The notes under the pieces were generated by a model that worked only from the letters and a program-made list of their open reading frames with translations, had not been told where the DNA came from and made no database searches. Of a stretch of DNA of 33,105 nucleotides, positions 2,208-33,105 are shown piece after piece; the first letter of the stretch is position 1, and every line of letters starts with the position of its first letter. A program made the position numbers and the translations under genes. Origin of the DNA: Bacteroidota bacterium (lineage in GTDB: Bacteria > Bacteroidota > Bacteroidia > Chitinophagales > Saprospiraceae); contig CAUJEY010000252.1 in NCBI GenBank assembly GCA_963169325.1, positions 1 to 33,105 on the forward strand, in the 5' to 3' direction.

Positions 2208-2211
2208 TATA

Positions 2212-2297
2212 AAGTTTTGAGTTTTGAGTTTCGGGTTTTGAGTTATGCCGAGCAAGATAACTCAAAACTCAAAACTCAAAACTCAAAACTCAAAACT
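2212..2297. repeat. Inverted heptamer array (ttttgag / ctcaaaa)
   Basis: The left arm at 2215-2242 has four ttttgag units, one of them degenerate (tttcggg). An 18-base spacer follows, then the right arm at 2261-2295 with five perfect ctcaaaa units. The two arms are reverse complements, so transcripts of either strand could fold into a stem of roughly 30 bp. The array starts one base after the stop codon of the ABC exporter (reading the minus strand) and ends a few bases before the alkyltransferase start. Confidence 0.95.
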
Positions 2298-2298
2298 A

Positions 2299-4119
2299 CT
2301 ATCTCACCACTTCGCCTGCCGATTGTTTTTCAAACAATTCCGCATAATAGCCGCCGGCGGCGATCAGTGATTCATGGGTGCCTGCTTCGGATATTCCATG
2401 ATCGTGCAGCACGATTATTTTATCAAACTGCAACATACCGTAGATCCGGTGGGTGATGATAATGGCCGTTTTATCGGCCAATGCCTGATCGAGATAACCC
2501 AGAATCTGGCTTTCCGTATTGGTATCCACCGCGGAAAGACAGTCGTCGAGCAGCACAATATCCGGTTTTTTGGCAAATGCGCGGGCAATACTGATCCGCT
2601 GTTTCTGGCCGCCCGAAAGGGTGACGCCGCGTTCGCCCACCAGGGTTTCATACCCTTTCGGCAGGCCCATGATGTCGTCGTGCACAGCCGCACTTTTAGC
2701 AAAAAATTCCGCTTCTTCCTGGCTGATCCCGTCTTTGCCAAAGGCGATATTGCCCCAAACGGTGTCGGAGAAAAGAAACATGTCCTGGGGTACGTAGCCG
2801 ATATGCCGGCGCAGTTGGTACAGGTCGTGTTCCCGCAAGTCGACGCCATCCAGCAGGATGCGGCCTTCGGTCACGTCGTACATGCGAACGAGCAGGTCGG
2901 CAATGGTTGTTTTGCCACTTCCTGTGCGGCCGATGATGGCTAATTTTTCCCCGGGCAACACCTCGAAAGAGACTTTTTCGAGGGCCTTGATGCCGGTATC
3001 AGGATACACGAAGGTGACATTATCAAAAACGATATGACCCTTTAGGCGCCCCTCTCCGATGGGTGCCGCCGGCGACACAATTTGGGGTTGTGTACTTAAA
3101 AATTCATTGATCCTTTTTTGCGAAGCGGCCGCCTGTTGGGTCAGCGAGGCGATCCAGCCGATGGCCGTTACGGGCCAGGTGAGCATATTGATGTAAATGA
3201 CAAATTCGGCGATATTACCGGCCGTGATATTGCCTTTCACCGCCTGTAACCCGCCCACATACACGGTAATAATGGTGCTGGCGCCCACCATGAGCAGCAT
3301 CAGGGGGTAAAAAAAGGCGTCTACCCGAATGAGACTCAGCGATTTTTGGCGAAACTCCTCGCTTTGTACGGCAAAATGCCGGCCCATGGCTTCTTCCTGT
3401 GCGTAACTTTTCACCACCCGAATGCCGCTGTACACTTCCTGGGCGGTGCTGGTGAGCACGGCAAGTTGCTGCTGAATTTTTTCGCTCCGGCGGTTTATCA
3501 TGGTGCTGACCCAGTAGATCGATATGCTCAGAAACGGCAGGGGCAGCAGCGACCAAAGTGTAAGCGTTACGTTGACCCGCAACATCGACGAGATGGTGAG
3601 CACGAACAAAAACGTGAGGTCCAGCCCGTACAGAATCGTCGGGCCAAGAAACATCCGCACTTTGGACACGTCCTCGGAAATACGCGACATGAGGTCGCCC
3701 GTGCTGTTGCGTTTGAAAAAGGCCAGGTCGAGTTTTTCGTAGTGCGCGAAAAGTTCTTTACGCATATCGTACTCGATCAGGCGGCTCATCACGATGATGG
3801 TCTGGCGCATGAAAAACATGAACAGCCCCATGGCCAGGGCCAGGGCGATGACGCCTGCGCCGAACCAGGCGATTTGTGTTCCGAGTTCGCGGTACGCTTC
3901 CGGGTGTGCGGCAATGCCACCTGTTTCCTGGTAATGTTTTACCTGTCGGATCACAGTGTCGAGCGCATCGCGGATCACTTTGGGCTGCCATACGCGAAAC
4001 CAGTTGGCCAGCCCGACAAACACGATACCCATTAAAAACCGCCAGCGGTATTTCCAGAAAAATTTATTCAGATAGGCGAGATGACGCATGTTTTCCTTGA
4101 TTGTTGCCTGCCAGGCCAT
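2299..4119 (-). CDS. ABC exporter half-transporter (fused permease and ATPase), MdlA/YheI-like
   Basis: This 606-residue type IV ABC exporter has an N-terminal six-helix transmembrane domain (about 20-330) and a C-terminal nucleotide-binding domain. Walker A is GRTGSGKTT (397-405), the signature is LSGGQ (501-505), Walker B is IVLLDD (521-526), and the switch histidine is in ITHRI. The residue that is normally the catalytic glutamate after Walker B is Asp526. This is the pattern of the degenerate half in heterodimeric exporters such as MdlA or BmrC/YheI, so a partner with a canonical site may be encoded elsewhere. None is in this window. The substrate is unknown; multidrug or lipid export is the family default. 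The gene is divergent from fbp and has a plausible promoter upstream. Confidence 0.93.
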   Translation of the reverse strand: MAWQATIKENMRHLAYLNKFFWKYRWRFLMGIVFVGLANWFRVWQPKVIRDALDTVIRQVKHYQETGGIAAHPEAYRELGTQIAWFGAGVIALALAMGLFMFFMRQTIIVMSRLIEYDMRKELFAHYEKLDLAFFKRNSTGDLMSRISEDVSKVRMFLGPTILYGLDLTFLFVLTISSMLRVNVTLTLWSLLPLPFLSISIYWVSTMINRRSEKIQQQLAVLTSTAQEVYSGIRVVKSYAQEEAMGRHFAVQSEEFRQKSLSLIRVDAFFYPLMLLMVGASTIITVYVGGLQAVKGNITAGNIAEFVIYINMLTWPVTAIGWIASLTQQAAASQKRINEFLSTQPQIVSPAAPIGEGRLKGHIVFDNVTFVYPDTGIKALEKVSFEVLPGEKLAIIGRTGSGKTTIADLLVRMYDVTEGRILLDGVDLREHDLYQLRRHIGYVPQDMFLFSDTVWGNIAFGKDGISQEEAEFFAKSAAVHDDIMGLPKGYETLVGERGVTLSGGQKQRISIARAFAKKPDIVLLDDCLSAVDTNTESQILGYLDQALADKTAIIITHRIYGMLQFDKIIVLHDHGISEAGTHESLIAAGGYYAELFEKQSAGEVVR

Positions 4120-4159
4120 GTCTAACCGACAAGCCCGGAGCGGGGAAAGAATCGGTTAA

Positions 4160-4215
4160 CAACACCGGTCGGAAAGTGTTGCAAAGTTAAGGAAAGTATT
4201 GGCGGTGGCGCGCAA
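4160..4215 (-). promoter_or_regulatory. Candidate promoter of the ABC exporter with an overlapping palindrome
   Basis: On the minus strand TAACTTTG (4182-4189) matches the Bacteroidota -7 box TANNTTTG. A TTG at 4213-4215 lies 23 nt upstream as a weak -33 element. Directly downstream of the -7 box is an inverted repeat, CAACAC (4160-4165) and GTGTTG (4176-4181), placed near the expected start of transcription. A second inverted repeat, TAACCGA (4123-4129) and TCGGTTA (4152-4158), lies in the predicted leader. Confidence 0.5.
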
Positions 4216-4277
4216 CTCCTTTTCGATACCGCCGAACGGCACGCTGATATGTGGCGTTCATTCTGTCGGGATTTATG

Positions 4278-4285
4278 TAATTTTG
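4278..4285 (+). promoter_or_regulatory. Candidate -7 box upstream of fbp
   Basis: TAATTTTG fits TANNTTTG exactly and lies 106 bases before the chosen fbp ATG. I see no convincing TTTG or TTG at the usual 17-23 nt spacing, so this is a partial match only. Confidence 0.35.
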
Positions 4286-4391
4286 TGCCGCGGCCAAAGC
4301 CGTATTTGCCAGAACCACTTTTGCCGCTTTTTCTCCGTTGCGAAAGCCGGGTGAAAAAGCGGATTTAACCTGTTACTCCACCACACACAAC

Positions 4392-5465
4392 ATGGCAACT
4401 TCTGCAAAAAAAACGCCTGAAAACGGCATCGCCGTTCCTTTTGCCCTGCCCGGCGGCAATCGTATCGTCACGCTTGACGAGTTTATCATCCGTTCGGAAA
4501 AGGATTTTGATTACGCCACCGGCGAACTGACCGGTTTGCTGCGCGATATCGGCGTGGCCGCCAAAATCATCAACCGCGAAGTAAACAAAGCCGGGTTGGT
4601 CAATATCATCGGCGTGGCCGACGGCTCGTCGGACAATGCTTCCGGCGACAAGCAGCAAAAACTGGACGTTTATGCCAACGAAAAACTCATCGAGTGCCTG
4701 AAAAACAGCGGCGAGTGTTGCGCCATAGCATCTGAAGAAAACGACGATATTATTCAGGTGCCGCCGGTCAATTCAAAAAAGAGCCATTATGTCGTCATGT
4801 TCGACCCCCTCGACGGTTCTTCCAACATCGACGTCAATATTTCCGTGGGCACTATTTTTGCCATATACCGCCGGAAAAGCGACCCGACCGGCCCGGCTAC
4901 CGTGGATGATTTTCTGCAAGCGGGTAGCAAGCAGGTGGCCGCCGGCTATGTGCTTTACGGTACTTCCACTATTCTGGTGTACACCACCGGCCGCGGGGTG
5001 AACGGCTTCACGCTCGATCCCAGCATCGGCGAATTTTGCCTCAGCCACCGCAACATGCGTATGCCGGAAGACGGCCAGTTTTACTCCGTCAACCAGGGCT
5101 ATTATTCCAAATTTGACCTGGAAATGCGCCGGTATATCGACAATTGCAGCGACGAGAACTATAGCCTGCGCTATATCGGTTCCATGGTGAGCGACATTCA
5201 CCGTATCCTGATTCAGGGCGGCATTTTCCTGTACCCCAGCACCCGAAAATACCCCAAAGGCAAACTGCGTTTGTTGTACGAATGTAACCCGCTGTCTATG
5301 ATTGTGGAACAAGCCGGCGGCAAATCCATGAACACACAACTCAAACGTATCCTCGACGTCGACCCGAAAGAATTGCACCAGCGCAGTACCATTGCCATCG
5401 GTTCGCCCAATATGGTGGATGAACTCAAGGCGTTTATCGAACGGTATTCGGCGTTGCCATTGTAG
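4392..5465 (+). CDS. fbp: Fructose-1,6-bisphosphatase, class I
   Basis: This 357-residue enzyme hydrolyses fructose 1,6-bisphosphate to fructose 6-phosphate in gluconeogenesis, in the cytoplasm with Mg2+. The signature metal and phosphate motif DPLDGSSNID lies at 138-147. The upstream acidic ASEEND segment (about 113-118) and the C-terminal YECNPLSMIVEQAGG segment are also class I hallmarks. The ATG at 4392 is preferred over a TTG at 4338 because the latter adds 18 residues unlike the family. The resulting length is close to the usual 330-350. The gene is divergent from the ABC exporter and followed by the long inverted decamer array, beginning 6 bases after its stop. Confidence 0.96.
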   Translation: MATSAKKTPENGIAVPFALPGGNRIVTLDEFIIRSEKDFDYATGELTGLLRDIGVAAKIINREVNKAGLVNIIGVADGSSDNASGDKQQKLDVYANEKLIECLKNSGECCAIASEENDDIIQVPPVNSKKSHYVVMFDPLDGSSNIDVNISVGTIFAIYRRKSDPTGPATVDDFLQAGSKQVAAGYVLYGTSTILVYTTGRGVNGFTLDPSIGEFCLSHRNMRMPEDGQFYSVNQGYYSKFDLEMRRYIDNCSDENYSLRYIGSMVSDIHRILIQGGIFLYPSTRKYPKGKLRLLYECNPLSMIVEQAGGKSMNTQLKRILDVDPKELHQRSTIAIGSPNMVDELKAFIERYSALPL

Positions 5466-5470
5466 AGAAT

Positions 5471-5642
5471 CGTCATTGGGCGTCATTGGGGGTCATTGAA
5501 CGTCATTAATCGTCATTGGGGGTCATTAATCGTCATTGGGGATCATTAATGACGATAATGCCCCCCAATGACGAACAATGACGAACAATGACGAACAATG
5601 ACGAACAATGACGAACAATGACGAACAATGACGAACAATGAC
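5471..5642. repeat. Inverted decamer array (cgtcattgNN / caatgacgaa)
   Basis: Eight decamers of the form cgtcattgNN run from 5471 to 5550. A short central part follows, then seven acgaacaatg decamers at 5571-5640. The right half is the same unit in reverse orientation. Each unit can pair over 8 bp with 2-nt internal mismatches, giving a very long imperfect hairpin. The array begins 6 bases after the fbp stop and ends about 20 bases before the next start codon. Confidence 0.97.
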
Positions 5643-5662
5643 CTAAATTTAACGAAACACCC

Positions 5663-6421
5663 ATGATTCGCGCAGAAAATATCATCAAAGATTTTGGCGA
5701 CCAGCAAGTGCTGAAAGGTATCTCCTTTACCTATGAAGCGGGCAAAACAAACCTGATCATCGGTCGAAGCGGCTCCGGCAAAACGGTGCTGATGAAAATT
5801 CTGGTCGGCCTTTTTCAACCGACCACGGGCAAAGTATGGTATGACGACGTGGATTTCACTGCGCTGAATAAACAGGAACTGCGCCCGATCCGCATGCAGG
5901 TCGGTATGTTGTTTCAAGGCTCCGCGTTGTTCGACTCGCTTACCGTGGAACAAAATATCCGCTTCCCGCTGGATATGTTTACACATCAAACGCCCAAAGA
6001 AAAACTGGACCGGGTCAATTATTGTCTCGAACGGGTAAACCTGGCGGGAAACAACAAAAAATTCCCCTCCGAACTGTCCGGGGGTATGCAAAAGCGCGTG
6101 GGTATTGCCCGCGCCATCGTGCTCAACCCCAAATACCTGTTTTGCGACGAACCCAACTCGGGCCTCGACCCCAAAACAGCCCTGGTGATCGACGAACTGA
6201 TCCGCAGCATCACCATCGAAAACAACATCACGACCATCATCAACACGCACGATATGAACTCGGTGATGGAAATTGGCGACAATATTTGTTTCCTGTACGA
6301 TGGCCGGCTCGAATGGAGCGGCACCAATGACGATGTTTTGCAAAGCGACAATGAAAACCTGCAATCCTTCATATTTGCGTCGCCGTTTTTGCAACGACTG
6401 CGGGAAAAAGCGTTGCGGTAG
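5663..6421 (+). CDS. MlaF-like ABC transporter ATPase
   Basis: This 252-residue ATPase subunit lacks transmembrane segments. Walker A is GRSGSGKT (34-41), the Q-loop region is MLFQGSALFDSL, the signature is LSGGM (138-142), and Walker B with its glutamate is YLFCDEP (158-164), followed by NSGLDP. The FQGSALFDSLTV segment and the overall length are typical of the MlaF/Ttg2A branch that drives retrograde phospholipid transport between the membranes. The usual partners, an MlaE permease and an MlaD MCE-domain protein, are not next to it. fbp is upstream and the FG-GAP lipoprotein is 42 bases downstream. The substrate assignment is therefore by family only. Confidence 0.85.
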   Translation: MIRAENIIKDFGDQQVLKGISFTYEAGKTNLIIGRSGSGKTVLMKILVGLFQPTTGKVWYDDVDFTALNKQELRPIRMQVGMLFQGSALFDSLTVEQNIRFPLDMFTHQTPKEKLDRVNYCLERVNLAGNNKKFPSELSGGMQKRVGIARAIVLNPKYLFCDEPNSGLDPKTALVIDELIRSITIENNITTIINTHDMNSVMEIGDNICFLYDGRLEWSGTNDDVLQSDNENLQSFIFASPFLQRLREKALR

Positions 6422-6463
6422 GCGTTTTATCTTTTCACAAAAGAATACTCGCTCATACCTGTT

Positions 6464-9400
6464 ATGCACATTTCCTCCGATTCGTCTTTGCGCCAGGTAA
6501 ATGGCTTGCATAACATCAGACCAATTTCCACCCTGGCTGTCGTTGCCATAATGCTCTTTTCCTCCGCCTGCCGGCAAACGCACACAGACACTCTTTTCAC
6601 TTCCCTGCCGCCCGCCGAAACCGGCGTTACGTTTGAAAACCAGCTCCCGGAACAAACTGCCGAAGGCGGCATGAATATTATTCAGTACCTGTATTACTAC
6701 AATGGCGGCGGGGTTGCGGCAGGCGATGTAAATAATGACGGCCTTCCCGATCTCTATTTTACCTCCAATACGGAAAAAAACCGGCTCTACCTGAACAAAG
6801 GCGGGTTTAAATTTGAAGATGTCACCGAAAAGGCCGGCGTCGGCGGCTCCGGCAGTTGGAAAACCGGCGTCGCCATGGCCGATGTGAATGCCGACGGCTG
6901 GCTGGATATTTATGTTTGCCAGGTAGGCAATTACAAATCCTTCCGCGGCAAAAACCAACTTTTTATCAACAACCGCGACGGTACCTTCACCGACCGGGCC
7001 GCCGAATACGGCCTCGACCTTTCCGCCTTTTGCACCCAGGCCGCTTTTTTTGATTACGATCGCGACGGCGACCTCGACTGTTTTGTGCTGTGCCACAGCG
7101 TACACAGTCCGGAGTCGTATAAAGACACGAGTATTTCCCGGCAGTATGATGTGATGGCCAGCGACCGGTTGTTTCGGAATGAGGCCGGATCTCACTTCAC
7201 CGACATCACCCCCCAATCCGGCCTGCGCGACGGCAAATCCGGCTACGGGCTCGGCCTGGCCATCGGCGATGTGAACGGCGACGGGTATCCCGATATTTAC
7301 GTCGCGAACGATTTTCACGAAAATGATTTTCTATATTATAATATGGAAGGTCGGTATTTTAAAGAAGGTATTTCACAAAGCACCGGCCACACCTCCAACT
7401 TCTCCATGGGGTGCGATATGGCCGATTTCAACAACGACGGCCTGCCGGATATCGTCACACTGGACATGAAACCGGAAGATGAAATCACGCTCAAAGCCAG
7501 TCAACCGGCCGACCAATACCCAGTGTACCAATTCAAACATTCGTATGGGTATCACTGGCAATTCCCCCGAAACTGCTTGCAACTCAACCGGGGAACGGTG
7601 GACGGTGGACGGGGGACGGGGGACGGGGGACGGGAGACGGTGGACGGTAGACGGGAGACGGGAGACGGCAGACGGTGGACGGGAGACGGTGGACGGCCCG
7701 CCGATTTCAGCGAGATTGGACAATTGGCCGGCATTGCCACCACGGATTGGAGCTGGAGCGCCCTGTTCGCCGATTTCGACCTCGATGGCTGGAAGGACCT
7801 TTACATCACCAATGGCATTCCGCACCGACCCAACGATATGGACTACCTCCAGTTTATTTCGTCTGCCGGGGTGCAGCGGCAGGCCGGCGACCTGGATATG
7901 GTGCGCAAAATTCCGTCCGGCAGTGCGGCCAATTATTGTTTTCGCAATAAATCCGACCTCACATTTGAAAATGTTTCAGCCCAATGGGGGCTGGCGCTGG
8001 AAGGCTTTTCGAATGGCGCCGCGTATGCCGACCTGGACAACGACGGCGACCTGGATCTGGTGACCAATAACCTGAACCAGCCGGCATCGGTATATAAAAA
8101 CAACGCAAAAGGCCGTAATTTTTTAAAAATCAAACCCGAAGGTTTGGGACTAAACCCCTTTGCCATCGGCGCGTCGGTTGTCGTGGAATGTGCCGGCGGC
8201 CTCCGGCAAACGCAGTATCTGCAACCGGTCCGGGGGTTTCAATCGTCCGTAGAGCCGGTGCTGATTTTCGGATTGGATACCTTCACGTCCGTGTCGTCTA
8301 TCCATATCCGCTGGCCGGATGGCACATCGCAGCACATGGCTGGCCCGGTAGCGACCAACCAAACGCTCCGCATCCGGCAAGAGCCCGGGAAAGACGACCC
8401 GCCCGCACCCGCGGGGGAAACCGTGTTTGCGCCCTTCCGGGACTTGCTTCCCACGCACCGCCAGAATCCGCCTGACGACATTATCCGGGAAAAACTGCTG
8501 CCCTGGTCGCTGGGTACACAGGGCCCAAAACTGGCCGTGGGCGACATAAACCGCGACGGACTCGACGATTTTTATTTGCCGGGGCCGTCGGGCGGCCAAT
8601 TGGTTGTGCAAACCAATGCGGGATTTTCTGTCCCGAAAACGTTGGTAAAGTCTCCACATACCCGGCTGGAAACCTGCGCCGTTTTTTTTGACGCCAACGG
8701 CGACGGCGCGCTGGACCTGTATGTCGGTACCGGCGGAAACCAACTGCCTGGTACTGATCCCGGCCTGACCGATTTTTTATGGATAAACGACGGACGGGGA
8801 AATTTTGAAGACCGTTCGTCTGACCGGCTGCCGAAAATGTTGGAAAATACGGCCTGCGTGCGCGCCGCGGACTTTGATGGCGACGGCGACCTCGATTTGT
8901 TTGCCGGCGGCCGTTCCGTGTCGGGGGCTTATGGCGTAGCGCCGAATTCGTTTCTGTTGGAAAATGACGGCAAAGGATATTTTACCGATATAACGGAAAA
9001 AATTGCCGGGCTTGGTCGGATAGGCATGGTGACGGATGCGCAATGGGCTGACCTCGATGGCGACCAGCGACCCGATCTCATCGTTTGCGGCGAGTGGATG
9101 CCGCTGACGGTTTTTTATAATACCGGCTCTGGCTTTGAAAAAAGAGATATCCCGCAATCGTCGGGGCTGTGGAACAGTATTGCCGTGGCCGACGTGGACG
9201 GCGATGGCGACCCTGACCTCGTTGCCGGCAATTTCGGCCGGAACGCTATTCTGCGCGCTTCGTCCAAAGAACCTTTGGGGCTTTGGGTAAAAGACCTCGA
9301 TCAAAACGGCTTCATCGACCCCATCATGACTTATTACCGCGAGGGGGAAAACCGTGTTTTTGCCGATAAAGACTGGCTGGCCGGCCAATTGCCGGTGGTG

Positions 9401-9904
9401 AAAAAAGGCTTCGTGCAATACCGGAAATATGCGGAAAGCACATTCGACGAGGTGTTCCCGGCGGCTATTTGGGCGGGTGCGATATACCGAACGGCGGAGG
9501 TACTGGAATCCTGTTGGGTGGAAAACCGTGGAAAGGCCGGTTGGGCATTGCAACCATTGCCGGCGGAAGCCCAGTTCAGCCCCGTATTTGCGATCTTGCC
9601 CGGCGATTTTGACGGCGATGGTCGCCTGGATATTCTGTTGGGCGGCAATTTGTACGAAGTGCAGCCCGCCGTTGGTCGCCAGGATGCCAGTTATGGGACA
9701 TACCTGCGCGGCGACGGAAAAGGTGGTTTTATCCCCCGGACGCCGGCCCAATCCGGCTTCCGGCTGCCAGGCGCCGCGCGCGATTTGAAAGTCATCCGGC
9801 GGGCCGGCGGGCGCAGCTCGGTACTTGCCGGCGTAAATGACGGTCCGGTCCAATGCTTCGACCTTCCACTAAAACACCCAAACACTAAAACACCCAAACA
9901 CTAA
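6464..9904 (+). CDS. FG-GAP/VCBS-repeat lipoprotein with ASPIC/UnbV domain
   Basis: The 1146-residue exported protein has a hydrophobic stretch (about 21-35) ending in SSAC with Cys36, a relaxed lipobox, so it is probably an outer-membrane lipoprotein. The body contains about 14 calcium-binding-type FG-GAP/VCBS motifs such as GDVNNDGLPDLY, ADVNADGWLDIY, DYDRDGDLDCF and DFDGDGDLDLF. They are arranged as two propeller-like sets around an ASPIC/UnbV-type segment (IHIRWPDGTSQ). Such proteins are thought to bind glycans or other surface ligands, but the exact role is unknown. Residues about 377-411 are an in-frame insert encoded by 14 heptamers (7595-7692), falling in the loop before FSEIGQLAG. 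The last residues (KHPNTKTPKH) and the stop codon are encoded by an octamer array. Confidence 0.93.
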   Translation: MHISSDSSLRQVNGLHNIRPISTLAVVAIMLFSSACRQTHTDTLFTSLPPAETGVTFENQLPEQTAEGGMNIIQYLYYYNGGGVAAGDVNNDGLPDLYFTSNTEKNRLYLNKGGFKFEDVTEKAGVGGSGSWKTGVAMADVNADGWLDIYVCQVGNYKSFRGKNQLFINNRDGTFTDRAAEYGLDLSAFCTQAAFFDYDRDGDLDCFVLCHSVHSPESYKDTSISRQYDVMASDRLFRNEAGSHFTDITPQSGLRDGKSGYGLGLAIGDVNGDGYPDIYVANDFHENDFLYYNMEGRYFKEGISQSTGHTSNFSMGCDMADFNNDGLPDIVTLDMKPEDEITLKASQPADQYPVYQFKHSYGYHWQFPRNCLQLNRGTVDGGRGTGDGGRETVDGRRETGDGRRWTGDGGRPADFSEIGQLAGIATTDWSWSALFADFDLDGWKDLYITNGIPHRPNDMDYLQFISSAGVQRQAGDLDMVRKIPSGSAANYCFRNKSDLTFENVSAQWGLALEGFSNGAAYADLDNDGDLDLVTNNLNQPASVYKNNAKGRNFLKIKPEGLGLNPFAIGASVVVECAGGLRQTQYLQPVRGFQSSVEPVLIFGLDTFTSVSSIHIRWPDGTSQHMAGPVATNQTLRIRQEPGKDDPPAPAGETVFAPFRDLLPTHRQNPPDDIIREKLLPWSLGTQGPKLAVGDINRDGLDDFYLPGPSGGQLVVQTNAGFSVPKTLVKSPHTRLETCAVFFDANGDGALDLYVGTGGNQLPGTDPGLTDFLWINDGRGNFEDRSSDRLPKMLENTACVRAADFDGDGDLDLFAGGRSVSGAYGVAPNSFLLENDGKGYFTDITEKIAGLGRIGMVTDAQWADLDGDQRPDLIVCGEWMPLTVFYNTGSGFEKRDIPQSSGLWNSIAVADVDGDGDPDLVAGNFGRNAILRASSKEPLGLWVKDLDQNGFIDPIMTYYREGENRVFADKDWLAGQLPVVKKGFVQYRKYAESTFDEVFPAAIWAGAIYRTAEVLESCWVENRGKAGWALQPLPAEAQFSPVFAILPGDFDGDGRLDILLGGNLYEVQPAVGRQDASYGTYLRGDGKGGFIPRTPAQSGFRLPGAARDLKVIRRAGGRSSVLAGVNDGPVQCFDLPLKHPNTKTPKH
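7595..7696. repeat. Intragenic heptamer array (acggtgg family), 14 units
   Basis: Fourteen contiguous heptamers run from 7595 to 7692, with variants acggtgg, acggggg, acgggag, acggtag and acggcag. A partial acgg follows. In the reading frame of the surrounding gene three heptamers make a seven-residue peptide repeat (TVDGGRG, TGDGGRE, TVDGRRE, TGDGRRW, TGDGGR). The unit length is not a multiple of three, so gain or loss of one unit shifts the frame. Confidence 0.97.
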
Positions 9905-9933
9905 AACACCCAAACACCCAAACACTAAAACAC
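9867..9933. repeat. Octamer array (cactaaaa / cacccaaa) at a gene end
   Basis: Eight octamers run from 9867 to 9930 in the order cactaaaa, cacccaaa, cactaaaa, cacccaaa, cactaaaa, cacccaaa, cacccaaa, cactaaaa, then cac. The first units encode the last residues of the FG-GAP protein. Its TAA stop (9902-9904) lies within the fifth unit. The array ends 8 bases before the start codon of the next gene. No inverted arm is visible. Confidence 0.96.
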
Positions 9934-9941
9934 ATTTGGCA

Positions 9942-11549
9942 ATGCCGCTCAAATCGATCGAACGCCTCATTTTCTTCCTGTTGCTGGCACTTCACCTGGC
10001 GCCACTGTGGTCAGTCCGGTATTTTCTCACCATCGACGGGCCCTGTCATTTGTACAATGCGAAGGTGTTGGCCGATTTTTCAGCGAGCGCCGATCTGCGC
10101 GATTTTTATGAGTCTTGGGTGTACCTCAACCTGCGTTTCGAACCGAACTGGTTCAGCCATTTTTTTATGAAATTGGGCTTTGCGGCGGGGATTCCGGCTT
10201 TTTTAAATGAAAAACTGCTGCAAACGTTTTACGTCCTATCCTTTGCGCTCGGGTTGCGTTTCGCAATTAAAAAGTTGGCGCCAAAGGGGGTGTTTCTGAG
10301 TTCGCTGGGGTTGTTGTTCGCCTACCACCACGTCTTTCAAATGGGGTTCTATAACTACTCCCTTAGTCTGGCCGGGATGTTCTGGGCCTTTGGCTATTGG
10401 CTGCGGTGCCGGGATGCCTGGACGACGGGGCGGCAAATCGGACTCGCTGCGCTTTTTCTGGCTTTGTTCTTTTGCCACCCGGTCGGCTTGCTCTTTTCCT
10501 TTTTACTGATCGGCAGCGTAATGTTGGCACAGGGGTATCGCGCGGGAGCATGGGCGGAACGGTTGCAGTATTTTCGGCAACAGGCTGTTGTGCTTGCCCT
10601 GACAGCCTTGCCAACGGTAGTGCTTTTCGGCGAATATTTATTTGCCAAAGGCTTGTCGTTTCGAAAATCGGGCGATTCCGGCACACAAATGTGGTCGGAA
10701 CTGGCGCGGTTGACTTCCCTGTGTACCATGATGGAAGTGGAGCGCAACTGGACGGTGGGCGTAGCCCTGTTGTTTCTTGCGCTGGTGGTTGCCGCTTTTT
10801 GGACTAAAACCCGGTCGCGCAGCTGGGGATGGACCGACATCTTATTGGGCGCCTTCCTCGTATCCCTGTTTATTTATTTCAAACAACCCGGCAGTTTTGC
10901 CGGCGCCGGCATCATGCCAATCCGCCTGCAGATGTTGCCATATTTGGTGCTGCTGCTGTGGCTGGCTACCCTGGATTTTCCCAAATGGATACAAGCCGGT
11001 ACAATGGCGGGTGTAGTGGCATTTTCTGCGCTTTTTTGGAGCATTCGTTTGCCGGCCCACTGGCGGGCCTCCGAAGCCGTGGCCGAATACGCCAGTTGCG
11101 CCGCGGCCATTCCCGATAAAGTATCCGTGCTTCCGCTGAGTTTCGATCACAACGGCCAACTATCCGATGGCCGGACGGTATCAACGGCCATGTGGCTATT
11201 CGTGCATGCCGCGGGTTATATCGGCGCAGAAAAAAGTATAGTCCTGCTGGATAACTACGAAGCGCATACCCACAATTTTCCGCTGTTCTGGCGCGAGCAA
11301 CGCGACCCTTATGTGTTTTTGCCCAAAGACGACGTCGGCTTCGAAGGCCAGCCGCCGCGGGCTGAATTCCTGAATTACAAGGCCAAAACAAACAACGCCA
11401 ATGTGGATTATGTGGTGACCTGGTGTTTGGATAAAAAGTTTAAGGACGATTTGTACACGAAGGAAATTAAGGAGCAGCTGGAGCGGGGGTATGAGTTAGT
11501 GTTTTCATCGGAGCATGATTTGGGCAGGGTGTACCGTAAGAGCCGCTAA
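9942..11549 (+). CDS. Multi-pass membrane protein, possible GT-C glycosyltransferase
   Basis: I do not recognise a named family with certainty. The 535-residue protein has about 10-12 hydrophobic segments, the first at residues 7-29, followed by an extracytoplasmic loop with TIDGPCHLYNA (Asp32, His36). An acidic residue in the loop after the first helix is typical of GT-C polytopic glycosyltransferases, which use lipid-linked sugars. The C-terminal 150 residues are largely soluble and would lie outside or inside the membrane depending on helix count. The ATG at 9942 is preferred over a TTG two codons earlier. The preceding FG-GAP gene ends 37 bases upstream, and most of that gap is octamer repeat, so the two genes are probably cotranscribed. 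Confidence 0.75.
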   Translation: MPLKSIERLIFFLLLALHLAPLWSVRYFLTIDGPCHLYNAKVLADFSASADLRDFYESWVYLNLRFEPNWFSHFFMKLGFAAGIPAFLNEKLLQTFYVLSFALGLRFAIKKLAPKGVFLSSLGLLFAYHHVFQMGFYNYSLSLAGMFWAFGYWLRCRDAWTTGRQIGLAALFLALFFCHPVGLLFSFLLIGSVMLAQGYRAGAWAERLQYFRQQAVVLALTALPTVVLFGEYLFAKGLSFRKSGDSGTQMWSELARLTSLCTMMEVERNWTVGVALLFLALVVAAFWTKTRSRSWGWTDILLGAFLVSLFIYFKQPGSFAGAGIMPIRLQMLPYLVLLLWLATLDFPKWIQAGTMAGVVAFSALFWSIRLPAHWRASEAVAEYASCAAAIPDKVSVLPLSFDHNGQLSDGRTVSTAMWLFVHAAGYIGAEKSIVLLDNYEAHTHNFPLFWREQRDPYVFLPKDDVGFEGQPPRAEFLNYKAKTNNANVDYVVTWCLDKKFKDDLYTKEIKEQLERGYELVFSSEHDLGRVYRKSR

Positions 11550-11568
11550 AATTATTCTCTACAAATTG

Positions 11569-11599
11569 TTTGAATAATCAAGTGTCTTTTGTACTTTTG
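11569..11599 (+). promoter_or_regulatory. Promoter of the toxin-antitoxin pair
   Basis: TTTG (11569-11572), exactly 19 nt, then TACTTTTG (11592-11599) reproduces the Bacteroidota consensus TTTG-N19-TANNTTTG. The antitoxin ATG is 15 bases downstream, so the leader would be very short. Confidence 0.75.
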
Positions 11600-11614
11600 A
11601 GCAAATTTTCCGCT

Positions 11615-11863
11615 ATGCAACAAGCAGAATTATATCAATCTGTTTTGCGTCAGTTGAGCCTACTCCCTGTCGAATACCTTAAACTCGTCGAGCAATTCGT
11701 TTCCGGGTTGAACCAGCGTACCCAAGATAAAAAGAAAAACCGACAAGCGATTCTGGCATTGGCAGGTTCTTGGAGTGATCTTTCAGAAGAGGATTTTGAA
11801 GAAATTCTTACGATCTCAAAACAGACCGGCGCTTCGCTTTTTTCCCGTGAAATTGACTTATGA
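11615..11863 (+). CDS. Putative antitoxin (VapB position)
   Basis: This small 82-residue protein begins MQQAELYQSVLRQLSLLP, is predicted mostly helical, and ends with a segment (SDLSEEDFEEILTISKQTG) that could wrap a toxin. No DNA-binding fold is obvious from sequence alone, so the assignment rests on position: its TGA overlaps the ATG of the PIN-domain gene (ATGA). The ATG at 11615 is chosen because an upstream in-frame TTG at 11570 lies inside the promoter. If it acts like VapB it neutralises the toxin and represses its own promoter. Translational coupling to the toxin is seen directly; the function is inferred. Confidence 0.75.
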   Translation: MQQAELYQSVLRQLSLLPVEYLKLVEQFVSGLNQRTQDKKKNRQAILALAGSWSDLSEEDFEEILTISKQTGASLFSREIDL

Positions 11864-12264
11864 ACCAAGCATTGCTCGATTCCGATACACTTTCCTTTTA
11901 CTTCAAGGGTAACCCAAAAGTGATTCAAAAAATAGACGGATATTTAGCGGCTTACGGGTTCGTGCATATTAGCGTCATCACTTTTTACGAAATCCTGAAT
12001 GGATTGTTATTTAAAGACGCCCGTGCCCAACTCCAACGTTTCCAGCAATTTGTGCAATTAAATCAAATACTTCCGGTGAATGTTGTTGTGGCTGAAGTCG
12101 CGGCGAAGATTTATGCTGATTTGCGAAGAAACAATCAAATGATTGGACATAACGATGTGCTTATCGGTGCAACTGCTATTGAAAACGATTTGACGCTAAT
12201 AACCAATAACATCAATCATTTTTCCCGTATTCCGGGATTATCTCTCGATAATTGGGCAATTTAA
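11860..12264 (+). CDS. vapC: PIN-domain ribonuclease toxin (VapC-like)
   Basis: This 134-residue PIN-domain protein carries the expected acidic residues: Asp7 in LLDSDTL, Glu44 in TFYEILNGL and Asp99 in HNDVLIGATA. The late motif LITNNINHFSRI resembles the TNN-x-x-HF-x-RI end of many VapC toxins. VapC enzymes are Mg2+-dependent RNases that usually cut tRNA or rRNA, held inactive by the cognate antitoxin. The start codon overlaps the antitoxin stop by 4 bases. Downstream it converges on the amidohydrolase gene with a gap of 17 bases. All catalytic positions look intact, so the pair is probably functional. Confidence 0.88.
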   Translation: MNQALLDSDTLSFYFKGNPKVIQKIDGYLAAYGFVHISVITFYEILNGLLFKDARAQLQRFQQFVQLNQILPVNVVVAEVAAKIYADLRRNNQMIGHNDVLIGATAIENDLTLITNNINHFSRIPGLSLDNWAI

Positions 12265-12281
12265 GGTTCCGTATTTGCTCG

Positions 12282-13472
12282 TCAGCTAATACCCAATTCC
12301 TTCACCGCCAGCCACGCCATCAATCCCATTCCCGTTTCCAATGCCGATTCATCCACATCGAAAGTATTGGTGTGAACGGGTGAGGTAATGCCGCGTGCGG
12401 GGTTGCCGGTGCCGAGGCGATAAAAGCAGGCCGGCATTTCCTGGGAATAAAATGCGAAGTCTTCGGAGGTCATACGCATGGGCAGGTCCACGACCTTGTC
12501 GGCGCCGAGCAATTCGACGGCCCATTGTTTCGCGCGGAGGGTCAGCGCCTCATTGTTGAAGAGCACCGGATAACCTTTCAGGATGTTGAAATCGCAGGCG
12601 CCGCCCATACTTTTAGCCATGGTTTCGGCGATACGTTTCATCCGTTTGTGTGCCTCGACGCGCCATTTTTCATTCATCGTTCGAAAAGTGCCTTCCAGTT
12701 TCACCTCATTGGGAATGATGTTGGTGGCGCCGCCGGTAGAGTTGATTTTACCGAAGGTCAGCACCGATGGAATGCCCGGATCGCAGTAGCGGCTCACGAG
12801 TTGTTGCAGAGACACGATCATTTGTGCCGTAATAACCACCGGGTCGATACAATCGTGCGGCATGGCGCCGTGTCCGCCGCGACCTTTTACAGTCACGAAA
12901 ATTTCATCGGCTGAAGCCATGTATATGCCGGGCCGGAAACCGGCCATGCCGGCGTGCAGCGGCGGATGTACGTGCTGACCGAAAATACTTACCGGGCGCG
13001 GACGCTGCAAAACGCCCTCCCGGATCATAATACTGGCGCCACCGGGCAGTTTTTCCTCGCCTGGCTGAAAAATACATTTCACTGTGCCTTCAAAGTGCTT
13101 GCGCAGTTCGTGCAATATACGGGCGGCGCCGAGCAGCGACGCCGTATGCACATCGTGGCCGCAAGCGTGCATAACGCCTTCATTTTGTGATTTGTAGGGC
13201 ACCTCATTGGCTTCCCGGATAGGCAGTGCGTCCATATCGCCGCGCAACGCAATGACCCGTTTATTCGGATTTTTGCCGCGGATAAGGGCCACCACACCGT
13301 TGCCGGCCATACCGAGTTTGTGCTGCACCCCCCATTCCGCCAGCCGCGCGGCCACATATTTACCCGTTTCCACTTCCTGGAAGGAGAGCTCGGGGTGCGC
13401 GTGCAGGTGCCGGCGGTGGGCGACGACATCGGGGTGGAATTGGCGGGCCAATGACAGGATATCTTCTTTCAT
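12282..13472 (-). CDS. M20-family amidohydrolase (hippurate / N-acyl amino acid hydrolase type)
   Basis: This 396-residue cytoplasmic metallohydrolase belongs to the M20D branch (AbgB, IAA-amino acid hydrolase, hippurate hydrolase, N-acetyl-diaminopimelate deacetylase). Visible metal-site motifs are HACGHDVHT (Cys104, His106), PGEE (Glu139-Glu140), GQHVHP (around 166-170) and a late PVHTNTF histidine. The N-terminal HRRHLHAHPELSFQEV is also characteristic. The ATG at 13470-13472 (MKEDILSLARQFHP) is chosen over a longer frame reaching 13529, which would extend over the promoter. The exact acyl substrate cannot be told from sequence. It is divergent from the cyclase-like gene. Confidence 0.93.
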   Translation of the reverse strand: MKEDILSLARQFHPDVVAHRRHLHAHPELSFQEVETGKYVAARLAEWGVQHKLGMAGNGVVALIRGKNPNKRVIALRGDMDALPIREANEVPYKSQNEGVMHACGHDVHTASLLGAARILHELRKHFEGTVKCIFQPGEEKLPGGASIMIREGVLQRPRPVSIFGQHVHPPLHAGMAGFRPGIYMASADEIFVTVKGRGGHGAMPHDCIDPVVITAQMIVSLQQLVSRYCDPGIPSVLTFGKINSTGGATNIIPNEVKLEGTFRTMNEKWRVEAHKRMKRIAETMAKSMGGACDFNILKGYPVLFNNEALTLRAKQWAVELLGADKVVDLPMRMTSEDFAFYSQEMPACFYRLGTGNPARGITSPVHTNTFDVDESALETGMGLMAWLAVKELGIS

Positions 13473-13526
13473 ATTTTCAAAGCGGCGGGGTAGGAAAAGT
13501 ACGCCCAAAACAAATGATCCGCTGAG

Positions 13527-13555
13527 CAAATGTACTTTGATTTGTAAAGATCAAA
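13527..13555 (-). promoter_or_regulatory. Promoter of the M20 amidohydrolase
   Basis: On the minus strand TTTG (13552-13555), 17 nt, then TACATTTG (13527-13534) fits the Bacteroidota pattern. It overlaps the candidate promoter of the divergent cyclase-like gene. Confidence 0.55.
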
Positions 13556-13576
13556 CAGGCCGATCGTTTAGTTTTG
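13541..13576 (+). promoter_or_regulatory. Promoter of the cyclase-like gene
   Basis: TTTG (13541-13544), 24 nt, then TAGTTTTG (13569-13576). The -7 box is perfect and the spacing slightly long. The -33 elements of this promoter and the divergent one interleave, so the two may interfere. Confidence 0.45.
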
Positions 13577-13624
13577 CGCACATAGCCGTACCTTGCACTC
13601 CATTCTAAACCGCCACATCAAGTT

Positions 13625-17725: not shown

Positions 17726-17732
17726 GTCTAAT

Positions 17733-18671: not shown

Positions 18672-18704
18672 TGTATTCGGCGGTCAGGAATTTGTTAGCT
18701 GGGT

Positions 18705-19367: not shown

Positions 19368-19379
19368 TTGTGGTTGTTA

Positions 19380-19470
19380 CGTCATTGGGCGTCATTGGGC
19401 GTCATTGGGTGCTGCTAATGACGCATATGACCCAATGACGATCAATGACGATCAATGACGATCAATGACC
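19380..19470. repeat. Inverted decamer array (cgtcattggg / caatgacgat)
   Basis: Three cgtcattggg units (19380-19409) are followed by a 23-base spacer and then three and a half caatgacgat units (19433-19470). The arms are reverse complements over 8 of 10 positions. The same core decamer forms the larger array at 5471-5642, some 14 kb away. This array lies between the stop of the Omp85-like gene and the start of the methyltransferase gene. Confidence 0.96.
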
Positions 19471-19472
19471 AA

Positions 19473-20927: not shown

Positions 20928-21015
20928 ATTTCCCCTTTTCGGCGTTCGTTGGGCAAAATAACGCCAAAACAATCAAAAAAATGGGATTGATCGACGCAAT
21001 TGCTTGATTTTGTGC

Positions 21016-21023
21016 TACCTTTG
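21016..21023 (+). promoter_or_regulatory. Candidate -7 box upstream of the coiled-coil/HhH gene
   Basis: TACCTTTG fits TANNTTTG and ends 21 bases before the ATG at 21045. A correctly spaced -33 element is not evident. Confidence 0.4.
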
Positions 21024-21044
21024 GTCAAAATCCTTCGGTAGTTC

Positions 21045-21944: not shown

Positions 21945-22017
21945 AAACAGGCAACACATCGGGGGGTAACCCTTAAGTTTCAAAAAAGTATTTCACTTTC
22001 AAATCAGGTATTCCGTT

Positions 22018-22899: not shown

Positions 22900-22918
22900 G
22901 GCAGGAGGTATTTTAGAG

Positions 22919-22926
22919 CAAAGGTA
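22919..22926 (-). promoter_or_regulatory. Candidate -7 box between jetD and the exported-protein gene
   Basis: On the minus strand TACCTTTG matches TANNTTTG and ends 19 bases before the start codon at 22899. No -33 element was found at the usual spacing. Confidence 0.35.
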
Positions 22927-22943
22927 TGGTAGGAGAAGAAAAA

Positions 22944-28065: not shown

Positions 28066-28069
28066 GGTT

Positions 28070-29545: not shown

Positions 29546-29698
29546 AGGGCGAAGGTAAGGTTTCTGAATGACGGGAGTGGCCCTACTACCGCCAGAAGTC
29601 ATCCGGGAAAAAATCGTCGTATTCTTTACTCGAAAATTTTTTTTTCTTTTTTCCCAACCATTTTCCCCTGTATTGCGATTTAACCGGCAACAAACGAA

Positions 29699-31733: not shown

Positions 31734-32352
31734 CGGCCTGCAGGCTTGCAAAAAAGAGGGCGATTACCCCGACAGTATTCGTCCAAGCGACTTCTTTGTG
31801 CGCTGTACCCTGGTGGACGACCAGGGCCGGGAACGCCCCTACGAATACCGGGGCGAAGATACGGTCACCCTGTTCCCGGGTGTTGTGTTCGAACTTGGCT
31901 ACCGCAGCAATGCCTATATCCAGGACAGCATTCGCCACATCTGGGGCGGATTGGGCGACGGGCTACTGCCCATGCCGTTTTACCTGCAATTCAGCCGCCC
32001 CGACCGGCTAAGCGACCCTTTCCAATCGCCGGAATGGCGCCCGGAAGATTTCGATAACCTGATCTATCCGGGTAAGGAATTCCGCTACGGCCCGGCCCCC
32101 GGCGAGGCGGTCATCGGTATCGCCGACTACCCCAACGGCGCCTGGTCGCTCAATACCCTCGGGCACGATAACGCCGGCAGTTACCTGCGCGTAGAGGAAG
32201 TATCCGACTACGGCATTCCCGAACTCGGTACGCCCTATTTTGGTAGAAAAGTGCGCTTCCGCTTTGAATGCCGGCTTTCCAACGGCGATAACGGCGACTG
32301 GCTTTTGCGCGATGGCGAAGTCGTGCTGTTTTTCCGGTACTACAAATATTAA
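31690..32352 (+). CDS. Lipoprotein of unknown function
   Basis: This 220-residue protein starts with a signal peptide (MNLPRFFLLLLLGVSG) and the lipobox LQAC, giving an N-terminal Cys20 in the mature form. No family is recognised. The body is beta-rich and acidic (for example RGEDTVTLFPGVVFELGYR) and ends VVLFFRYYKY. It starts within the 3' end of the anti-sigma-like gene and is followed 12 bases later by a second lipoprotein gene. All four genes from the sigma factor on are therefore likely one transcript. A role as a surface or periplasmic partner of the beta-barrel domain is a guess based on position. Confidence 0.88.
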   Translation: MNLPRFFLLLLLGVSGLQACKKEGDYPDSIRPSDFFVRCTLVDDQGRERPYEYRGEDTVTLFPGVVFELGYRSNAYIQDSIRHIWGGLGDGLLPMPFYLQFSRPDRLSDPFQSPEWRPEDFDNLIYPGKEFRYGPAPGEAVIGIADYPNGAWSLNTLGHDNAGSYLRVEEVSDYGIPELGTPYFGRKVRFRFECRLSNGDNGDWLLRDGEVVLFFRYYKY

Positions 32353-32364
32353 AAACCTGCAACC

Positions 32365-32973
32365 ATGAAAAATCTCCGTATTTCCCTGCTTCTGCTCCCC
32401 CTCGGCCTGTGGCTTGGCGCCTGCAACCGCGCTGAAACCTTGGTTAACCAATGCCCGCCCTGCCCCAATAATACCGAGTGTCTGGAAGGCGATTGCGGCT
32501 GCCCGCCCGACAAACACGACATGGGCAGCTGGTGCCTTTCCAAAAACGACAACCTCTTTGTGGCCGCCAGCCTCGACTGTTATTGTTTCGGTGTGGTGGG
32601 GTTGTATCTGTGGAATATTACCCCGGAAACCGGCTCCGGCGGCGGGGTGCAAATACCGGCTTCCTCTTTTTCCATCATGGGGCGCGGCAACAGCATGGGT
32701 TCCAATACCGGCAATTTTGCTTACTACGACCTGCCCGACGGCGATAGCATTGCCATTTATGCCGTGCTCATTCCCGATTCCAATATGCCCGGTATTAGCC
32801 AAAGCTACTGCCGCATCAACAGTGAAATGGCCTGCCGGGCCGATCTTTTTGGAAAATTTAACGGACCCGACACTATTCAGGCACAGGTTGTGTGGCGGCG
32901 CTGCAGCGATAACGACGGCGAATGGCTGAATTACGAAGAGATCAAGCCCTTGACATTTGTGCGGAAACGGTAG
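32365..32973 (+). CDS. Cysteine-rich lipoprotein of unknown function
   Basis: This 202-residue protein has a signal peptide (MKNLRISLLLLPLGLW) and lipobox LGAC (Cys20). Right after it comes a Cys-rich stretch, CPPCPNNTECLEGDCGCP, resembling an EGF-like or similar disulfide knot. Further Cys residues (LDCYCFG, SYCRINSEMAC, RRC) follow in a beta-rich body. It is the fourth gene of the sigma-factor cassette. The TAG stop (32971-32973) is the last three bases of the first heptamer of the tandem array that runs to the window end, so the repeat defines the C-terminus. Confidence 0.88.
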   Translation: MKNLRISLLLLPLGLWLGACNRAETLVNQCPPCPNNTECLEGDCGCPPDKHDMGSWCLSKNDNLFVAASLDCYCFGVVGLYLWNITPETGSGGGVQIPASSFSIMGRGNSMGSNTGNFAYYDLPDGDSIAIYAVLIPDSNMPGISQSYCRINSEMACRADLFGKFNGPDTIQAQVVWRRCSDNDGEWLNYEEIKPLTFVRKR

Positions 32974-33105
32974 ACGGTAGACGGTAGACGGTAGACGGTG
33001 GACGGTGGACGGTGGACGGTAGACGGTAGACGGTGGACGGTGGACGGTGGACGGTGGACGGTGGACGGTGGACGGTGGACGGTGGACGGTGGACGGTGGA
33101 CGGTG
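32967..33105. repeat. Heptamer array (acggtag / acggtgg), continues past window end
   Basis: Nineteen full heptamers and six further bases run from 32967 to the last base. They are nearly all acggtag or acggtgg, and the final stretch is uniform acggtgg. The first unit supplies the stop codon of the preceding lipoprotein gene. The unit is the same family as the intragenic array at 7595-7692. Confidence 0.97.

What the first reader, a model, noticed from the sequence alone, without database searches (positions are those of the whole stretch)
2212..33105. Short-period tandem arrays placed at the 3' ends of genes in same-direction junctions
Seen in sequence: six arrays of 7-, 8- or 10-bp units in 33 kb, at 2212, 5471, 7595, 9867, 19380 and 32967. 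Five begin within 0-6 bases of a stop codon, or contain it. Four of these fill a junction between two genes on the same strand and end 5-21 bases before the next start; the fifth runs out of the window. Of about 11 non-overlapping same-direction junctions, counting the last, five carry an array. None of the four divergent or four convergent junctions does. Unit sequence and length differ between sites, so position and not sequence is the shared property. Inference: they may tune termination or coupling inside operons, or mark a slippage- or element-driven process targeted to gene ends. Short heptamer repeats are known from cyanobacteria (STRR), but I know of no described gene-end rule for this lineage.
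Basis: partly seen in the sequence, partly recalled or inferred. Interest (0 to 1): 0.8.

Follow-up and report, generated by a model that had tools for sequence, protein, structure and literature searches.

The report
Outward-pointing repeat arrays at gene edges
In this bacterium, short 7-10 base repeats fill many of the gaps between genes, sit tight against gene ends and gene starts with their G/T-rich strand pointing away from the gene, and often face each other as hairpins; such a rule was reported for single G-rich repeats in Xanthomonas and Nostoc but here holds for many unrelated repeat units.

Summary
The six arrays are real and non-random. Three are inverted PAIRS (hairpins), one lies inside a gene, and two pairs of sites share a repeat unit. 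In 805 kb of contigs taken by number from the same 8.07 Mb Saprospiraceae-like genome there are 119 arrays. Same-direction junctions are only mildly favoured (50 clusters/315 junctions, against 8/78 convergent and 7/93 divergent). The strong rule is polarity: arrays abutting a gene edge, stop or start, carry the G-rich strand outward (64 of 67), and inverted pairs are G-then-C (17 of 20, none C-then-G). It holds for units without GG (35 of 36), in most relatives tested and in loci of other phyla. Arrays occupy the S10/spc ribosomal-protein operon, where a sister species has a different unit or no array at the same junction, so they turn over fast. Rehm et al. 2015 reported the same position-and-strand rule for one G-rich heptamer family in Xanthomonas and one in Nostoc, linked to G-quadruplexes; these cannot be the general cause here. 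Best reading: slippage and fold-back copying make array hairpins in spacers, and orientation at gene edges is filtered afterwards. The 3'-edge polarity remains unexplained. New variant of a known kind.

The parts
2213..2297 (.). Inverted array pair (AGTTTTG)4.6 ... (AACTCAA)5.6 filling the junction between the MGMT-type gene (start at 2207, minus strand) and the ABC exporter (stop at 2299, minus strand)
   Evidence: TRF; arms 94% complementary; RNA fold -46.3 kcal/mol, z -11.7
5471..5642 (.). Inverted array pair (CGTCATTGGG)7 ... (CAATGACGAA)7.7 between the fructose-1,6-bisphosphatase gene and an ABC ATPase gene (mlaF-like by recall)
   Evidence: TRF; arms; RNA fold -94.3 kcal/mol, z -11.9
7589..7696 (+). 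Heptamer array (ACGGTGG/CGGGGGA family, 15.4 copies) inside the ORF, an in-frame insertion in a loop of variable length
   Evidence: TRF; homologues lack most of these residues
9867..9933 (+). Octamer array (AAACACCC / AAACACTA variants) holding the stop codon of the FG-GAP gene (9902-9904) and ending 8 bases before the ATG at 9942; single, predicted unstructured as RNA
   Evidence: TRF; fold -1.3 kcal/mol, z -0.6
19380..19469 (.). Inverted array pair (CGTCATTGGG)3 ... (CAATGACGAT)3.7 between an Omp85-domain gene (stop at 19473) and a methyltransferase gene (start at 19367), both minus strand
   Evidence: TRF; z -7.7; no array at the orthologous junction of G054
32967..33105 (+). Heptamer array (ACGGTGG/ACGGTAG, 19.9 copies) holding the stop codon 32971-32973 and running off the contig end
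   Evidence: TRF; contig C252 ends here
6464..9904 (+). FG-GAP / ASPIC-UnbV protein gene carrying one array inside and one at its stop
   Evidence: Pfam; translation
5663..6421 (+). ABC transporter ATPase gene downstream of the second array pair
   Evidence: Pfam
4392..5465 (+). Fructose-1,6-bisphosphatase gene upstream of the second array pair
   Evidence: Pfam

Best explanation
The arrays are rapidly turning-over slippage products of untranslated spacers. A unit of 7-10 bases expands by replication slippage, and fold-back (snap-back, quasi-palindrome) copying lays an inverted copy on the other side of the spacer, giving a hairpin of array arms. Units are then re-used at other spacers, which explains the small shared pool. 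Arrays survive mostly outside coding sequence and reach up to the functional border: the stop codon on one side, the bases just before the start codon on the other. Orientation is filtered: before a start, the sense strand must be the G-poor A/C-rich strand that array-free leaders of this genome also show. The G/T-rich arm after a stop follows in pairs because it is the complement of the other arm. SHOWN: arrays, inverted pairing, edge-hugging, polarity, differences between sister species at the same junctions, the unit pool. PARTLY SHOWN: inverted copying. INFERRED: slippage as the engine, fold-back priming, re-use between loci, selection as the orientation filter. NOT EXPLAINED: why arrays at convergent 3' edges and partner-less 3' arrays have the same polarity.
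For: Edge-hugging: 24 of 34 testable clusters vs 5.7 expected. Polarity: 64:3 outward-G in the unbiased sample (3' edges 39:2, 5' edges 25:1, 2 neutral); neighbouring arrays 17 G..C, 2 C..C, 1 G..G, 0 C..G of 20. Array-free 5' leaders already have outward G over C in 224 vs 40 edges, 24 neutral. Same or related unit in both arms of 33 of 35 pairs by eye, no 11-mer shared between any spacers. Of 78 single intergenic clusters, 31 have a degenerate inverted partner across the junction. Arms share the order of variant units in 12 of 38 testable pairs at p<=0.05, pairs from relatives and other taxa included. Different array content at the same S10/spc junctions in G054 and G044. Coding arrays show no strand bias (C 14, G 10, 2 neutral), and the one in the window is an insertion into a variable loop. 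65 heptamer arrays use 20 units against 62.5 expected at random.
Against: Array-free 3' edges are almost unbiased (117:84, 17 neutral), yet 3' arrays are 39:2; in convergent junctions, with no leader to select on, 3' arrays are 16:0 (2 neutral). Supply of stop codons does not rescue this: 16 of 16 3' arrays whose stop codon would lie only in the opposite orientation are still K-outward. Partner-less 3' arrays are K 11, M 2 (few). No gradient of decay along arrays. 26 of 38 pairs show no shared order between arms. Hairpins of the opposite (M..K) polarity exist at array-free junctions, so fold-back is not confined to one strand.
Confidence: 0.45

Rival explanations
1. Functional RNA spacers: the paired arrays form intergenic RNA hairpins that insulate neighbouring genes, block ribosome run-on, are cut by RNase III, or protect the 3' end as REP elements do; unpaired A/C-rich arrays act as unstructured leaders.
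For: Strong predicted folds for the five paired spacers folded (z -7.7 to -11.9); spacers between arms of 44 nt or less in 32 of 35 pairs; hairpins with different units at the same ribosomal junctions in sister species, so structure is kept while sequence changes; position in spacers likely to be transcribed.
Against: Some ribosomal junctions are hairpin-free in the sister (14 bp in G054 at rplW|rplB against 120 bp); relatives of the same genus have almost no arrays in the samples taken (G007 0 in 100 kb, G009 1 in 80 kb); many arrays are single, and the one folded is unstructured; arms are not strictly complementary in the longest window example (80%).
Confidence: 0.27
2. Templated or untemplated 3'-end extension: breaks in spacers are extended at both 3' ends with G/T-rich repeats by a polymerase (telomerase-like reverse transcriptase or end-joining polymerase) and rejoined, giving telomere-like outward G/T strands on both sides.
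For: It predicts the polarity at starts and stops alike, in convergent and divergent junctions, and the same unit in both arms. A bacterial reverse transcriptase, DRT10, makes tandem-repeat DNA with a noncoding RNA (PMC12632851, preprint, abstract seen).
Against: Reverse transcriptase genes (PF00078) do not obviously track arrays: 25 of 41 genomes of the genus have one, the array-poor G007 and G009 have 2 and 5, and G016, with 3 arrays in one 4-kb locus, has none. No gradient along the arrays. No template RNA and no end-joining gene was sought.
Confidence: 0.1
3. Small mobile elements (REP/BIME- or MITE-like) carrying array arms, spread by a transposase.
For: Many dispersed copies of the same units, inverted pairs, presence or absence at orthologous sites.
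Against: No shared spacer 11-mers among 35 pairs and many different units; no target duplication seen by eye at the one site examined.
Confidence: 0.06
4. G-quadruplex (or i-motif) DNA or RNA function, as discussed for the Xanthomonas and Nostoc repeats.
For: Same position and strand rule as PMC4692102; some units here are G-rich, e.g. GGGGGTTT.
Against: The polarity is as strong for consensus units with no GG or CC: 35 of 36 in the unbiased sample, 53 of 56 in all G000 loci.
Confidence: 0.05
5. Assembly artefact.
For: Arrays lie near contig ends (18 of 97 sampled ends within 150 bp).
Against: Similar arrays and polarity in less fragmented relatives (G021, about 50 contigs; G022, about 70) and ACGGTGG arrays in a few isolate genomes, one labelled complete (HdN1), though few of those isolate arrays sit at a gene edge; conserved flanking genes. 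Ends in arrays are what short-read assembly produces at true repeats.
Confidence: 0.02

Closest known systems
GGGAATC (Xanthomonas) and GGGGA(C/T)T (Nostoc) heptamer repeats, Rehm et al. 2015, PMC4692102 (part of the abstract and passages seen; author name recalled)
   Same: Intergenic tandem heptamers, favoured between aligned ORFs; within 50 bp upstream of an ORF on the antisense strand or within 50 bp of the stop on the sense strand, i.e. G-rich strand outward; inverted convergent pairs in Xanthomonas (70 and 75 cases); overlap with stop codons.
   Different: There one G-rich unit family per lineage, discussed as G-quadruplexes, and 90% of repeats between the same ORFs in the two Xanthomonas genomes. 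Here 47 canonical units of 7-12 nt in 805 kb, many without GG, and different units at the same junction in sister species.
TAACTGA repeats of Beggiatoaceae and some Bacteroidetes, MacGregor 2015, PMC4679880 (abstract and sections 3, 7 and 12 seen)
   Same: Heptamer direct repeats just upstream of starts, mostly in one orientation; in F. litoralis one set just downstream of a stop in reverse orientation; long sets in some Bacteroidetes.
   Different: A single unit, mostly 2-6 copies in the main genome; one inverted repeat in 170 sets.
Cyanobacterial STRR (short tandemly repeated repetitive sequences; recalled, no paper read)
   Same: Heptamer arrays, intergenic.
   Different: No test made here.
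Borg tandem repeats, PMC9879509 (abstract and section 2.1.3 seen)
   Same: Fast-evolving, independently arising arrays in intergenic regions and ORFs, with biased composition.
   Different: A-rich, in extrachromosomal elements; no inverted pairing or outward polarity in the part I read.
REP/BIME elements (recalled; PMC3733652 and PMC3116915 seen in search listings only)
   Same: Intergenic hairpins after stops, inverted pairs.
   Different: No conserved core found here, many units.

Membership tests
G-rich heptamer repeats of Rehm et al. 2015 | Tandem arrays mainly intergenic | tested here: met
   11 of 99 clusters fully coding in the unbiased sample, although about 88% of sequence is coding
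G-rich heptamer repeats of Rehm et al. 2015 | G-rich strand on the sense side after stops and on the antisense side before starts | tested here: met
   39:2 and 25:1
G-rich heptamer repeats of Rehm et al. 2015 | G-quadruplex-forming G-rich unit | tested here: not met
   36 of 69 edge arrays in the unbiased sample have consensus units without GG/CC and keep the rule (35:1)
G-rich heptamer repeats of Rehm et al. 2015 | Conserved between the same ORFs in sister species | tested here: inconclusive
   Few junctions compared: rplW|rplB without array in G054, rplB|rpsS and rpsS|rplV with other units, one junction with ACCGTCC-like repeats in both G000 and G044 by eye
TAACTGA repeats | Unit TAACTGA | tested here: not met
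   Not among the 47 canonical units listed
REP/BIME | Conserved palindromic core copied between loci | tested here: not met
   No 11-mer shared among the spacers of 35 pairs
REP/BIME | Associated TnpA-REP transposase | not tested
   Not searched
Telomerase-like / DRT10 product | Reverse transcriptase present where arrays are present | tested here: inconclusive
   PF00078 hits in 25 of 41 genomes; G016 none, G007 2, G009 5; array density of G016 known only from one 4-kb locus
Intrinsic terminators | GC-rich stem followed by a T-run at the array | tested here: inconclusive
   No consensus site inside the four intergenic arrays of window 1-20000 or on the sense strand in the array spacers of L111, but the scan allows loops of 3-8 bases only; the array at 32967 was not scanned

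The most novel reading that the evidence does not exclude
Bacterial chromosomes carry out telomere-like addition: after breaks in spacers, both 3' ends are extended with G/T-rich 7-10-mer repeats drawn from a genomic pool of templates and then rejoined, leaving outward-facing, head-to-head arrays at gene edges in many phyla.
Probability: 0.07. Interest if true: 0.92.

Novelty: new variant of a known kind. Interest (0 to 1): 0.57.

Why it matters
A strand-polarity rule for gene-edge repeats was linked to G-quadruplexes in two lineages. Here it is as strong for units that have no GG, is seen in loci of several phyla, and lies inside the ribosomal-protein operon. That removes the standing explanation as a general one and poses a sharp question: why does a tandem array touching a stop codon almost always carry its G/T-rich strand outward, even between convergent genes? 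The differences between sister species and the near-absence of arrays in samples of some species of the same genus make the question testable by comparison and in culture.

Tried and rejected
Array junctions as rearrangement or HGT borders: an mlaF-type hit (80% or more identity) lies in the same locus as FBPase in 10 of the 23 same-genus loci fetched (some loci are cut by contig ends), in three of them 11, 21 and 23 bp away without an array, so this array pair need not be a border; synteny with a 200-kb stretch of G022 was too low to test the idea widely (18 matches). Stop-codon supply as the cause of 3' polarity: rejected as general (16 of 16 against). G-quadruplex: rejected as general. Terminal growth: no gradient (63 arrays, 0.183 against 0.183 mismatches, p = 0.83). 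Mobile cassette: no shared spacers. Reverse transcriptase as the driver: no clear correlation. Rfam: no hit in the window at gathering scores. tRNA or tmRNA: none. Avoidance of termination as the polarity filter: fails for convergent junctions.

Limits of the counts. Scripts stopped with errors after printing part of their output; one search was redone, one search was not. Gene edges rest on a home-made ORF and codon-score caller, which misplaces some starts (rpsS, for example) and missed the 495-aa ORF at 30246; a second pass adds long ORFs. The first 19 stretches were chosen because most contain known units; they are used only in counts marked 'all'. Of 99 clusters, 11 at contig ends and 12 without a flanking gene were dropped from the junction classes, 11 are coding. 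Of 119 arrays, 30 were not at an edge, 7 touched both edges and 13 were coding, so they are not in the 64:3 count. Edge counts with looser rules: 3'-nearest arrays more than 15 bp from the edge are K 1, M 5 in G000 and K 3, M 9 elsewhere; some of these are anchored to the opposite edge or misassigned.
Full report
WHAT WAS CHECKED. Among the named loci, the best protein matches of the sampled contigs are 91% identical (one protein) to an uncultured Bacteroidetes MAG and 79-87% (three proteins) to a Saprospiraceae MAG. TRF finds the six sites; three are inverted pairs, one lies within a gene, two hold a stop codon. Chance does not give them: 0 arrays in 60 order-1 Markov copies against 9 in the window. 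K below means the G/T-rich strand, M the A/C-rich strand.

BEYOND THE WINDOW. They hold 119 arrays of period 6-12 (65 of period 7, 29 of 8, 17 of 10, 5 of 9, 3 of 12) in 99 clusters. Classes: co-directional 50, convergent 8, divergent 7, coding 11, contig end 11, no flanking gene 12, against 315, 78 and 93 non-overlapping junctions; co versus the rest p = 0.036. Among 34 clusters with at least 60 bp of free spacer, 24 lie within 12 bp of a gene edge against 5.7 expected for uniform placement, at stops (14 vs 3.1) and at starts (10 vs 2.6).

POLARITY. For arrays within 15 bp of one edge and clearly further from the other, the strand pointing away from the gene is the G-richer one in 64 of 67 (39:2 at stops, 25:1 at starts; 2 more neutral), and the G/T-richer one in 67 of 69. 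In all G000 data, including contigs chosen for known units, it is 98:6 with 4 neutral. Neighbouring arrays are G..C in 17 of 20 (unbiased) and 32 of 35 (all), C..G in none. By junction (all data): convergent 3' edges 16:0 with 2 neutral; co-directional single arrays at stops 17:1; divergent starts 9:2. Array-free edges give the baseline: 224:40 at starts but only 117:84 at stops. The polarity at starts is thus largely that of any leader in this genome; at stops it is special to arrays.

NOT G-QUADRUPLEXES, NOT STOP SUPPLY. Consensus units with no GG or CC keep the rule: 35 of 36 (unbiased), 53 of 56 (all). Of 68 arrays at stops, 64 are G/T-outward; 16 of these have a stop codon only in the opposite orientation.

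HAIRPINS. Of 78 single intergenic clusters with both flanks, 31 have a degenerate inverted partner across the spacer (p <= 0.01), 42 do not and 5 leave no room. The three window pairs and two L111 pairs fold as long RNA hairpins (z -7.7 to -11.9), whereas the 9867 array is unstructured. Arms share variant order in 12 of 38 testable pairs, a sign of inverted copying in some. No spacer 11-mer is shared among 35 pairs. Array-free junctions contain other hairpins of mixed or opposite polarity, M 13 and K 5 between convergent genes, several built of CACATAGG-like quasi-repeats. Junctions with arrays give K 27, M 1.

UNIT POOL. 65 heptamer arrays use 20 units against 62.5 expected from the same composition; successive spacers of one operon draw different units from this pool.

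RELATIVES. In the same genus, arrays per sampled sequence are G021 31 in 200 kb, G022 22 in 200 kb, G012 11 in 160 kb, G009 1 in 80 kb, and none in G007 (100 kb), G008 (40 kb) and G005 (20 kb). Polarity in the three array-bearing relatives is 26:5 together: G021 16:1, G022 8:2, but G012 only 2:2, so the rule is not shown there; neighbouring arrays are 5 of 5 G..C. By keto skew, 51 loci outside Bacteroidota (one unclassified) give 27:6 and 55 Bacteroidota loci 55:5. These loci come from fewer genomes than loci and were chosen by one unit.

TURNOVER. L111 holds the S10/spc ribosomal-protein genes (rplD, rplW, rplB, rpsS, rplV, rpsC, rplN, rplF, rpsE and secY named by NCBIfam; operon name recalled), with ten array clusters in its spacers. 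At rplW|rplB the spacer is 120 bp with an AAAACTC hairpin in G000, 14 bp in G054 and 95 bp with a degenerate hairpin in G044. At rplB|rpsS G000 has AAAACTC arms and G054 AAACTTC arms. At rpsS|rplV G000 has AAATCGT arms, while G054 and G044 have an AATGTGGTC-like pattern (units of degenerate arms read by eye). In the window, G054 lacks the array at 19380. The MGMT-ABC exporter order is kept without a TRF array between the two genes in G054, G014, G024 and G047, while G049 and G006 have inverted pairs of 9-10-mers and 8-mers after the same exporter. The direction of change was not established.

IN-GENE ARRAY. Homologues of the FG-GAP protein align on both sides of about residues 377-413 and have a short loop of variable length there, so the 36-codon array is an in-frame insertion. 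Coding arrays show no strand preference (G 10, C 14, 2 neutral).

KNOWN WORK. PMC4692102 (Rehm et al. 2015; part of the abstract and passages seen) reports for Xanthomonas and Nostoc that G-rich heptamers sit within 50 bp upstream of an ORF on the antisense strand or within 50 bp of the stop on the sense strand, favour aligned ORFs, overlap stop codons and, in Xanthomonas, form inverted pairs. That is the same rule. PMC4679880 (MacGregor 2015; abstract and sections 3, 7 and 12) reports TAACTGA heptamers just upstream of starts mostly in one orientation, with one Bacteroidetes set reversed just after a stop. A search for papers holding 'Saprospiraceae', 'tandem repeats' and 'intergenic' returned none, and no paper listed mentions Saprospiraceae. 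The listings (titles and starts of abstracts) showed me no other obvious statement of the rule. As far as these searches go, new here are: the rule without G-quadruplexes, many units in one genome, ribosomal-operon spacers with different units in sister species, and loci in several phyla for one unit.

MECHANISM. I commit to slippage plus fold-back copying in spacers with an orientation filter at gene edges (0.45). The weak point is the 3' polarity, above all between convergent genes. The 3'-end-extension model predicts it best but has no direct support.

Noticed in passing
L083, L086, L096, L110, L112, L125 (convergent junctions): A second class of spacer hairpins built of CACATAGG/CACAGAGG-like quasi-repeats, with the A/C-rich arm first (M..K) and often flanked by A and T runs: terminator-like and opposite in polarity to the arrays (array-free convergent junctions: M 13, K 5).
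   Followed up: partly
window 5466-5662 and L141, L142, L143, L146, L150, L163: In several relatives a gap of several hundred bases with a small ORF (DUF2141-like by recall, not tested; one search failed) lies between FBPase and mlaF; in the window it is missing and the array pair occupies the spacer.
   Followed up: partly
window 6464-9904; FG-GAP/UnbV-type proteins: 45 matching stretches in the window's own genome, against 3-33 in the 15 same-genus relatives searched.
   Followed up: no
window 11570-12264: A small ORF overlapping a PIN-domain gene (Pfam): looks like a toxin-antitoxin pair.
   Followed up: no
L111:10447-10753: Two 12-mer arrays in the C-terminal part of rpsC lengthen ribosomal protein S3 to 345 aa (NCBIfam model of 212 positions).
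   Followed up: no
contig ends of G000 (C39, C40, C66, C96, C165 and the window's own end): Many contigs end in or near arrays (18 of 97 sampled ends within 150 bp), so array number and length are underestimated.
   Followed up: partly
L383 (G049) 3314-3477: Hairpin of GGTTGATGA-type 9-10-mers whose two arms share rare unit variants, by eye the clearest case of one arm copied from the other.
   Followed up: partly
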